In this document: piece after piece, positions 5,506-7,142 of the stretch | How positions within the stretch are numbered: position 1 is the first letter of the stretch | How the letters are laid out: each line of letters opens with the position of its first letter | Source: Cyclobacteriaceae bacterium | Lineage (GTDB): Bacteria; Bacteroidota; Bacteroidia; Cytophagales; Cyclobacteriaceae | Assembly (NCBI GenBank): GCA_027067135.1 | Contig: JAMOMJ010000038.1 | Location: forward strand, 1 to 37,730 | Length of the DNA stretch: 37,730 nucleotides | Reading direction: 5' to 3' | Program-made: the position numbers and the translations under genes | The notes under the pieces: model-generated | Told to the model about the DNA's origin: nothing | Databases searched by the model: none | The model's input: the letters and a program-made list of their open reading frames with translations, nothing else

Positions 5506-5886
5506 ATGGCCGATTACAAAAAATTATTGAGTTTTTTAAAAGTAGATTCTATTTTTGAAGATATAGTTGCCATTGTTGAAGCCAAAGTAGAATTACTAAA
5601 AATTGAGCTCAAAGAAGAAGCCGCCAAAACAGCTTCCAAAATAATCAGTGCTGTTTTTTTAGGCATAATGGTATTTCTGATAGTAATTTTTTTAAGTGTA
5701 ACAATTGCTTCACTAATAAATTACTTTATGGAAAGTAATTATTGGGGATACGCAATCGTAACTTTATTTTACATTTTATTACTTGTTGGGTATAAAGTGT
5801 TTAATGTGGGCAAAAAGTTAGAAATACGAATAGAAGAATCTTTGAATAATTTACATAAGAGCGAAGAAGAGGATGACCTTGAATAA
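5506..5886 (+). CDS. Phage-holin-family small membrane protein (DUF1469-like)
   Basis: 126 residues: an amphipathic, Lys/Glu-rich N-terminal helix (about 10-45), two membrane segments (about 47-70 and 79-97) and a charged C-terminal tail. This is the layout of the 'phage holin family' proteins (PF07332-like) widespread in Bacteroidota chromosomes. Despite the name, no lysis or phage genes are nearby, so a housekeeping envelope role is more likely. It lies 29 bases after the SPOR lipoprotein in the same direction. One base after its stop begins the left arm of a 36-bp perfect inverted repeat, whose right arm covers the start of the next gene. Confidence 0.75.
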   Translation: MADYKKLLSFLKVDSIFEDIVAIVEAKVELLKIELKEEAAKTASKIISAVFLGIMVFLIVIFLSVTIASLINYFMESNYWGYAIVTLFYILLLVGYKVFNVGKKLEIRIEESLNNLHKSEEEDDLE

Positions 5887-5887
5887 G

Positions 5888-6050
5888 CTAGTGTGTTAAT
5901 TACTAAATTCATTCACTATTTTTGCTTATATTTTTACTTTGGACAAGGCAAAAATTGAAAGCATAGCAGCGATACGGTTGAAATTTTTAACACAGTACAA
6001 AGGGAAAAGAAAGGAAAAATAGTGAATGAATTTAGTAATTAACACACTAG
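5888..6050. repeat. 36-bp perfect inverted repeat flanking 91 bp
   Basis: Positions 5888-5923 and 6015-6050 are exact reverse complements over 36 bp. After one mismatch the match continues for 3 bp inward (5925-5927 with 6011-6013). The intervening segment is 5924-6014. The left arm starts one base after the stop of the holin-like gene. The right arm contains the upstream region, the ATG at 6026 and the first eight codons of the next gene. I see no convincing TAnnTTTG promoter in the spacer; the closest is TACTTTGG at 5935-5942. Confidence 0.95.
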
Positions 6051-6433
6051 AGCAAGAAAAGGCCGAGCGTAGAAAGGAACTTTTGGCTATTCTTGAAAGT
6101 AAGAAAAAAGAGTTACAAAAGCACTTTGAAGAAAGTGCCAATAAGTCGATTGATGCAGGTAAAGGGCTATTAGTAATTGGTACAGGTATATTGTTGTTAT
6201 ACACCATATTCGACCGATTTTTAGAATCTAAATTTAGAGTAAAGCACACTGCTAAGGAAGCTTCTTCGAGTAAAGCCGTACCTAATAAACTGCTTTACCC
6301 TATTTTTTCAATGATGCTTCAGCAAGGTTCAAGCCTATTATTTAATGAAAGCCAAAAAAGGCTAGTTGATTATCTAAAAAATAAAAGATCAAAAAATGAA
6401 CGTATATCAGCAAGTATTTCAATCAAAAAATAA
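6026..6433 (+). CDS. Small coiled-coil membrane protein, unknown function
   Basis: 135 residues. A strongly charged N-terminal helix (about 8-42, rich in Lys/Glu) looks like a coiled coil; one membrane segment lies at about 46-61; the rest is basic. An in-frame TGA sits directly before the ATG, so no longer start is possible. The next alternative start would remove much of the coiled coil. Codons 1-8 lie inside the right arm of the inverted repeat, so a transcript that also contains the left arm would bury this start codon in a stem. It follows the holin-like gene, as such small envelope proteins often do in this phylum. Its end overlaps the GGGP synthase start by 38 bases. I do not recognise a family. 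Confidence 0.65.
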   Translation: MNLVINTLEQEKAERRKELLAILESKKKELQKHFEESANKSIDAGKGLLVIGTGILLLYTIFDRFLESKFRVKHTAKEASSSKAVPNKLLYPIFSMMLQQGSSLLFNESQKRLVDYLKNKRSKNERISASISIKK

Positions 6434-7142
6434 ATCCTTTGCTGTACTAATTGACCCAGATAAAACAGGGCCGTTTCAAGTTGAAACCACATTAAACACT
6501 ATAAATTCTATTAATGAAATTAGTGCCATTTTTGTTGGTGGTAGCTTAGTTGCCGATGGGAGCACCCAGCAGCTCATTCAATATATTCGAAAAAACACGA
6601 CTAAACCTGTTGTCTTATTTCCAGGAAATGTAAATCAAATTTGCGAAGCAGATGCCATCCTCTTTTTAAGCCTTATTTCAGGAAGAAACCCTGAATATTT
6701 AATCGGGCAACATATTTCGGGTGCTCCACTTATTAAAAAGCTAGGACTAGAGGCCATTCCTACCGGATATTTACTCATAGGAGAGCCTTCTAGTACCGCT
6801 TATGTTAGCAATACAACACCAATCCCCAATAATAAACCAGACCTTGCAGTAGCAACAGCTTTGGCGGGCGAAATGCTAGGTCAATCACTCATTTATATGG
6901 ATGCTGGCAGTGGGGCTACAAACCCTATTTCTGAAGATATGATTTCGAAAGTATCGGGTAGTTTAAACTCACCACTGATAATTGGTGGGGGAATTCGAAC
7001 TTATGAAGACGCAAAAAAGGCCCTCATTGCTGGGGCCCATTGTATTGTAGTTGGTAATGCGGCAGAAACTAACGCTGCTATTTTATTTGAAATAGCCAGT
7101 GCCGTTTCTGATATTAACCGAAGTTTAGAGGTTCATCAATGA
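6396..7142 (+). CDS. Geranylgeranylglyceryl phosphate synthase (PcrB/GGGPS family)
   Basis: 248 residues forming a TIM barrel of the family that transfers a polyprenyl group to sn-glycerol-1-phosphate, the first ether bond in archaeal lipids. Visible motifs: LIDPDKT near 18, FVGGSLVADGS near 46, YLLIGEPSST, YMDAGSGA, GGGIRTYEDA and the phosphate-binding VVGNAAETN near the end. Bacteroidota carry a bacterial branch (group II) of this family whose final product is not well defined. The start overlaps the previous gene by 38 bases, suggesting co-expression. The end overlaps the convergent AraC-type gene by 18 bases. Confidence 0.9.
   Translation: MNVYQQVFQSKNKSFAVLIDPDKTGPFQVETTLNTINSINEISAIFVGGSLVADGSTQQLIQYIRKNTTKPVVLFPGNVNQICEADAILFLSLISGRNPEYLIGQHISGAPLIKKLGLEAIPTGYLLIGEPSSTAYVSNTTPIPNNKPDLAVATALAGEMLGQSLIYMDAGSGATNPISEDMISKVSGSLNSPLIIGGGIRTYEDAKKALIAGAHCIVVGNAAETNAAILFEIASAVSDINRSLEVHQ

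What the first reader, a model, noticed from the sequence alone, without database searches (positions are those of the whole stretch)
5888..6050. 36-bp perfect inverted repeat that embraces a translation start: possible invertible switch or self-masking mRNA
Two exact 36-bp arms flank 91 bp. The left arm begins one base after a stop codon; the right arm carries the ATG and the first eight codons of the 135-residue membrane protein gene. Perfect identity over 36 bp, partly coding and partly not, is unlikely to persist by drift and suggests recombination between the arms (inversion of the 91-bp core) or a recent origin. Invertible promoters between inverted repeats are a known control device in Bacteroidota. 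Alternatively, a message read through from the upstream gene would hide the start codon in a 36-bp stem, while a transcript starting within the spacer would not. I find no clear promoter in the spacer and no invertase gene in the window, so the mechanism is open.
Basis: partly seen in the sequence, partly recalled or inferred. Interest (0 to 1): 0.72.

Follow-up and report, generated by a model that had tools for sequence, protein, structure and literature searches.

The report
Mobile hairpin DNA supplies start codon
The inverted repeat is a 163-base, transposase-free jumping element that landed in the first codons of a small membrane-protein gene, cut off its old start codon and offers one of its own; the element is of an ordinary kind, the replaced start is the unusual part.

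Summary
In detail: exact 36-bp arms (5888-5923, 6015-6050) flank 91 bp, and the right arm carries the ATG of the 135-aa gene. An invertible promoter is not supported. The whole 163 bp is one copy of a repeat family: a second copy in the same genome (89%), 12 places in a congener, one place each in four other genera. 15 of 17 right ends read ACTA, and a second insertion has an empty site at CTAG in the congener. So this is a MITE (non-autonomous transposon) of TA-duplicating, IS630/Tc1-like type; no parent transposase was identified. In relatives without the element the gene's ATG overlaps the upstream holin-like gene (5 of 6 verified). Joining the flanks restores an in-frame start at 5873; with the element, that start gives only MTLNKLVC* and the right arm supplies ATG plus seven codons. 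The gene stayed intact (dN/dS about 0.07). The perfect arms are secondary: only here has the left arm the right-arm sequence, as template-switch correction would give. In a read-through mRNA the new ATG is predicted fully paired; a ribosome stopping on the 8-codon remnant would expose it.

The parts
5888..6050 (+). MITE copy, 163 bp including the outer C and G of the CTAG target; TA-GTGTG...CACAC-TA at 5889-6049
   Evidence: multi-copy family in own genome and congener; alignment
5888..5923 (+). left arm (terminal inverted repeat), converted to right-arm sequence
6015..6050 (-). right arm; carries ATG 6026 and seven further codons of the downstream gene, reading outward
5924..6014 (+). 91-bp core, itself an imperfect palindrome; the whole element is 79% identical to its own reverse complement
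5889..5890 (.). TA, left copy of the presumed target-site duplication
   Evidence: CTAG at the empty site of the C390 copy in G004; copies without flanking C or G
6048..6049 (.). TA, right copy of the presumed target-site duplication
   Evidence: as for the left copy
5506..5886 (+). upstream gene, Phage_holin_3_6 (PF07332) membrane protein; its 3' end overlapped the next gene's start before the insertion
5873..5899 (+). original start codon (5873) now opening only an 8-codon remnant, MTLNKLVC*, that stops inside the left arm
   Evidence: homologous starts in relatives
6026..6433 (+). 135-aa gene with element-supplied start; no Pfam family
6396..7142 (+). PcrB-family gene downstream, overlapping the 135-aa gene

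Best explanation
The inverted repeat is a MITE: a short, transposase-free mobile element with terminal inverted repeats that duplicates TA inside a CTAG target (shown by copies and by one empty site of a sister copy; the IS630/Tc1 type of the mobilising transposase is inferred). It inserted at codons 6-7 of the 135-aa gene, which used to start inside the 3' end of the holin-like gene (shown by relatives and by joining the flanks). The insertion ended the old frame after eight codons. The gene survived because the element's right arm has an ATG and an open frame running out of the element in the phase of the gene (sequence shown; use of this ATG inferred). At some time the left arm was overwritten with right-arm sequence, giving perfect 36-bp arms (sequence state shown; template switching inferred). 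Expression is most likely still from the operon transcript, with the new ATG in a long stem, opened in part by ribosomes that end on the eight-codon remnant, or escaping through transcripts that start or are cut within the element (inferred).
For: Whole 163 bp recurs: G000 C390 at 89%, 12 places in G004, one place each in G155, G115, G112 and, in part, G084. Empty site of the C390 copy in G004 at CTAG. Element absent at this gene in 4 of 4 congeners. Old start overlaps the holin gene in 5 of 6 homologues; the joined flanks read MTLNKLEQEKAERRKELLAILE, like MKNNLEELKAARRKELLAILE of G004. Gene intact, dN/dS 0.067 against G004, the same as holin 0.067. Arm diagnostics: 0 of 10 other left arms have the right-type tract; the window has it in both arms. 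Hairpin z -10.3. Unpaired probability of the ATG 0.00 / 0.98 / 0.93 for read-through / ribosome on the remnant's stop / start at the spacer.
Against: No parent transposase with matching ends was found; the only IS630-like fragment in the own genome (23.3 bits, below the Pfam cut-off) shares TAGTGT, but its next 35 bp do not resemble the window's arms (1950 and 1393 of 2000 shuffles as good). There is no exact empty site for this very insertion, because G004 differs there. dS is near saturation, and pairwise dN/dS averages over time before and after insertion. TTG 6083 could be a shorter start. With a ribosome on the remnant's stop the wider start region is still mostly paired (0.28 unpaired). 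All expression steps are folding predictions for 37 C with an assumed footprint.
Confidence: 0.85

Rival explanations
1. Site-specific invertible promoter: a recombinase flips the 91-bp core between the arms and switches the 135-aa gene on and off.
For: Perfect inverted arms around a non-coding core upstream of a gene; such switches exist in Bacteroidota (recalled).
Against: Arms and core travel together as a multi-copy unit; no promoter-like site in the element; the ATG lies in an arm and is not moved by inversion; arms of the other copies aligned are imperfect; the 16 window proteins scanned against Pfam gave no recombinase (other ORFs and the rest of the genome were not scanned).
Confidence: 0.03
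2. The element has broken the gene: translation from the hidden ATG is negligible and the 135-aa frame is an early pseudogene.
For: Read-through mRNA is predicted to hide the ATG completely; the overlap with the holin gene seen in relatives is lost.
Against: No stop or frameshift in 128 codons after the junction, constraint against G004 no weaker than in the two neighbouring genes, and no excess of lineage-specific residue changes (7 versus 6 in G004; holin 14 versus 7; pcrB 23 versus 13). A very recent insertion would look the same; the window copy is 11% diverged from the C390 copy, which argues against that only if it diverged in place.
Confidence: 0.2
3. Assembly or amplification artefact that created a fold-back at this place.
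For: The genome is a fragmented draft (472 contigs); fold-backs occur in such data (recalled).
Against: The element is a full-length member of a family found at other places in this and other genomes, differs from the other copies aligned, and the genes on both sides keep their order in G004, G001 and G002.
Confidence: 0.02
4. Perfect arms are kept by selection for an RNA hairpin (regulator or RNase III site) rather than produced by a neutral correction event.
For: Strong fold; neisserial MITE RNAs are cut by RNase III (PMC2229807, passages read).
Against: Of the copies whose two arms were compared only this one has perfect arms; copies with imperfect arms can fold as well (element alone: window -62.1, C80b -64.5, G115 -66.5 kcal/mol); one template-switch event explains all tract differences at once.
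Confidence: 0.1

Closest known systems
Bacterial MITEs of the Correia/NEMIS, ERIC and Yersinia palindromic kinds
   Same: Some 100-170 bp, no transposase, terminal inverted repeats, 5'-TA-3' motif in several, hairpin RNA, mostly between genes (PMC2229807, passages read)
   Different: Other hosts; no sequence comparison made. Here the right arm supplies a start codon to an older conserved gene
Rickettsia palindromic elements (RPE)
   Same: Palindromic repeat of about 150 bp that can become part of coding sequence (PMC10969869, passages read)
   Different: RPEs make in-frame fusions within genes; this element stops the old frame and only its last 25 bp are coding, as a new N terminus
MITECca01 of Cardinium (Bacteroidota)
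   Same: MITE in the same phylum (PMC9769881, passages read)
   Different: Derived from an IS982-family element, about 240 bp; parent known
Quasipalindrome template-switch correction
   Same: Imperfect inverted arms made alike in one step (PMC8604942, abstract read)
   Different: That paper describes yeast genes; here the arms are transposon ends

Membership tests
MITE | Short, no transposase gene | tested here: met
   163 bp; the + strand frame that overlaps it is the host gene
MITE | Terminal inverted repeats | tested here: met
   36 bp exact here; shorter and imperfect in other copies
MITE | Several dispersed copies with different flanks | tested here: met
   (copies in G004 C39 and C80b share flanks with each other)
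MITE | Target-site duplication against an empty site | tested here: met
   C390 copy: G004 has one CTAG where G000 has CTAG...CTAG; for the window copy only joined flanks could be examined
MITE | Parent autonomous element with matching ends | tested here: inconclusive
   PF13358 found in G000 (fragment below cut-off) and G004, in 1 of 8 further genomes; no matching ends shown
IS630/Tc1-mariner-derived MITE | TA duplication | tested here: met
   15 of 17 right ends read ACTA; the base after it is A, not G, in C80a, C80b, C39a, C39b and C150, so CTAG is a preference
IS630/Tc1-mariner-derived MITE | Mobilised by an IS630-family transposase | not testable with these tools
   needs a transposition assay
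Invertible promoter (invertase switch) | Promoter inside the invertible segment | tested here: not met
   no TTG-N17-23-TAnnTTTG-like site (5 of 6 or better; consensus recalled) and no sigma-70-like site in 5888-6050; consensus scans only
Invertible promoter (invertase switch) | Both orientations present in a population | not testable with these tools
   no reads available

The most novel reading that the evidence does not exclude
A transposon end serves as a ready-made translation start under leader-peptide control: the gene's own former start codon now makes an eight-codon peptide whose terminating ribosome uncovers the left-arm bases that pair with the new ATG, so that an insertion that should have broken translational coupling of two overlapping genes re-created it through a 36-bp stem across about 130 bases.
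Probability: 0.15. Interest if true: 0.6.

Novelty: new member of a known kind. Interest (0 to 1): 0.33.

Why it matters
It shows how a selfish hairpin can land in the coding start of a conserved gene without killing it, by lending it a start codon and N terminus, and how such ends can become perfect palindromes by correction and not by recent duplication. If the coupling reading holds, it would be a concrete case of a transposon replacing the translational link between two operon genes. It also warns that perfect inverted repeats at gene starts in Bacteroidota should be checked for MITEs before they are called invertible promoters.

Tried and rejected
Parent transposase: PF13358 (DDE_3) was sought in G000 and G004 and in eight further genomes, one of which (G374) had it (its loci were not examined further). 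G004 C65 has a 354-aa open frame, but inverted 11-mers in its locus gave no such ends. A fragment in G000 C12 (below the Pfam cut-off) ends in TTTACACTAG; beyond the shared TAGTGT its end does not resemble the window's arms or the family's left arm (1950, 1393 and 964 of 2000 shuffles as good) and only weakly resembles the ends of a sister subfamily (41, 49 and 241 of 2000). Left open.

Start-codon supply as a general habit of the family: rejected. Of 17 copies examined, 13 have the right-arm ATGAAT; in the 12 others the frame runs 12-65 aa, and none coincides with an ORF of 70 aa or more.

Promoter in the element: none found. The nearest full match to the Bacteroidota-type pattern is TATTTTTG at 5550, inside the holin-like gene, one of 8 such perfect matches in the window on both strands; it could start an operon-internal transcript, which would still hold both arms. 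Rfam: no family in the window at gathering scores. Order draw searched for the 19-base end with one mismatch (390 genomes): own genome and one single hit in G374. Phylum draw searched with the element (395 genomes, about two candidates per genome scored): own genome only. So the range given is a lower bound.

Literature: searches, of which only the top of each list was shown (20 of 236, 15 of 35, 10 of 20, 10 of 38, 10 of 214; one search found none). In these listings I saw no paper on a MITE that supplies a start codon. 'start codon' occurs 0 times in each of the four MITE papers searched inside (PMC2229807, PMC9769881, PMC10969869, PMC5896051).

Full report
What is there. Exact 36-bp arms at 5888-5923 and 6015-6050 flank 91 bp (40 bp at 98%). 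Apart from these arms, only one pair of inverted 14-mers lies within 1 kb of each other in the window, so this is not chance. The upstream gene (5506-5886) is a Phage_holin_3_6 protein, the 135-aa gene (6026-6433) has no Pfam family, and a PcrB-family gene follows.

It is one unit of a repeat family. A search of the own genome with 5506-6433 returned the 163 bp 5888-6050 at C390 (89%), one arm at C44 and related cores at C428, C158, C43 and C13 (75-76%). In the same genus, G004 has it at 12 places (C242, C80 twice, C31, C39 twice, C136, C60, C150, C96, C44, C211; several truncated); G002 and G003 have none and G001 only a weak 46-bp match. With the C390 copy as query a thirteenth, partial place turned up in G004, C223. 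G004 corresponds to contigs of a Cyclobacteriaceae MAG (JALSJD01; same contig numbers, lengths and positions). In the family, 6 of 196 genomes match: own, G004, G155, G115, G112 and, over 82 bases, G084. In a draw of 395 genomes of the phylum only the own genome matches (about two candidates scored per genome).

Spread. The window copy is 84-90% identical to the G004 copies that lack the 23-bp insert mentioned below (those with it align at 74-76%), while synonymous sites of the neighbouring genes are nearly saturated between the two genomes (pS 0.67-0.71). The family therefore seems to have spread after the two species split, which would need some horizontal movement; this is inference.

Ends and target. 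15 of 17 right ends read ACTA (the worn ones are G115 and G112); the next base is G in ten of these and A in five (C80a, C80b, C39a, C39b, C150). The C390 insertion has an empty counterpart in G004: filled GCATG-CTAG...CTAG-TATTT, empty GCATA-CTAG-TATTT. This is TA duplication with a taste for CTAG, as in IS630/Tc1-mariner elements (family trait recalled). Four G004 copies carry all or part of a 23-bp palindromic insert at one spot of the core.

What the insertion did. In relatives without the element the start codon of this gene lies inside the end of the holin-like gene. This was verified in 5 of 6 homologues (G004, G001, G002 and two other genera, G010 and G042); in the sixth, G003, the upstream frame was not recovered by the script. 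In the window the equivalent ATG is at 5873, 11 bases before the holin stop codon. Joining the flanks at one TA reads MTLNKLEQEKAERRKELLAILE, which resembles G004 MKNNLEELKAARRKELLAILE. With the element present, 5873 gives MTLNKLVC and stops at 5897-5899 in the left arm. The right arm then supplies ATG 6026 and MNLVINT, in phase with LEQEK. No other in-frame ATG lies before 6311; TTG 6083 is a possible shorter start.

Is the gene still used? The 128 codons after the junction are open. Against G004, dN/dS is 0.067, the same as the holin gene (0.067) and lower than pcrB (0.127); residues changed only in G000 number 7, only in G004 6 (holin 14 and 7, pcrB 23 and 13). dS is above 1.6 in all three, so these ratios are rough, and they average over the time before the insertion. 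The window copy is 11% diverged from the C390 copy. If that divergence arose in place, the gene outlived the insertion by some time; the element could also have arrived diverged.

Why the arms are perfect. In the family the two arms share about 22 bases and then differ. Of 10 other left arms, 6 read GGTTTACT, 2 (C39a, C39b) have lost the stretch by deletion and 2 distant ones read AGCTTACT or GGCTAACT; none has CATTCACT. Of 14 other right arms 9 read CATTCACT exactly. The window has CATTCACTATTTTT in both arms, while the core next to its left arm is still of left type. The left arm was therefore overwritten by right-arm sequence, before or after the insertion. Template switching at imperfect palindromes does this (PMC8604942, abstract read, on yeast; general mechanism recalled). 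Perfect arms do not make this the strongest hairpin of the family: the element alone folds at -62.1 kcal/mol against -64.5 for C80b and -66.5 for G115.

How it may work now. As RNA 5840-6100 folds at -83.5 kcal/mol (z -10.3). In a read-through transcript the ATG has unpaired probability 0.00; a ribosome on the holin stop does not change that (0.00); one on the remnant's stop gives 0.98, although the wider start region stays mostly paired (0.28); a transcript beginning in the spacer gives 0.92-0.93; the joined flanks give 1.00 for the old ATG. No promoter-like site lies in the element; a full Bacteroidota-type match at 5550, inside the holin-like gene, is one of 8 in the window. The 8-codon remnant is thus well placed to open the new start, but this is a prediction from a footprint that I assumed (block 5885-5912).

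Invertible switch. Arms and core move together, no promoter-like site sits in the core, and inversion would not displace the ATG. No reads were available and the genome was not searched for invertases, so rare inversion is not excluded.

Not a habit of the family. Of 17 copies 13 carry the outward ATG, and only in the window does it open a gene; in the other 12 the frame ends after 12-65 codons.

Literature. Bacterial MITEs with TA ends, hairpin RNAs and fused reading frames are well described (PMC2229807, PMC10969869, PMC5896051: passages read), and one MITE is described in Cardinium of the same phylum (PMC9769881, passages read). In the listings I saw no report of a MITE end that supplies the start codon of a conserved gene; the family's sequence itself could not be searched in papers.

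Verdict. Apparently a new family of an ordinary kind of element, with an unusual consequence at this site.

Noticed in passing
G000 C428:135-219, C158:44857-44941, C43:7207-7291 (L005, L006, L007): A sister MITE subfamily shares the core of the window element but has other ends (such as TAGTGTAACGATTCCTAAAAAAGCCG), so core and ends have been reshuffled.
   Followed up: partly
G004 C39, C80, C60, C96 (L022, L023, L024, L030): Four copies carry all or part of a 23-bp palindromic insert (CCTGTCTGCCGAATACAGGCAGG) at the same spot of the core, a second small repeat nested in the first.
   Followed up: no
G004 C39 and C80 (L020, L022, L023): These copies share their flanks (attgaatttctg...acatagacagattccgcat), so the MITE sits inside a longer repeat.
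   Followed up: no
G004 C136 (L021, about 1621-2300): This copy is cut by tandem REP-like repeats followed by an open frame that looks to me like a REP-associated transposase (recognised by eye, no HMM run).
   Followed up: no
G000 C390:2940-3104 (L002): The other full copy in the own genome sits one base from the ATG of an open frame, so both full copies found there lie at gene starts.
   Followed up: partly
window 6396-6433: The 135-aa gene also overlaps the start of the PcrB-family gene by 38 bases, so these genes form a chain of overlaps and the MITE broke one link.
   Followed up: no
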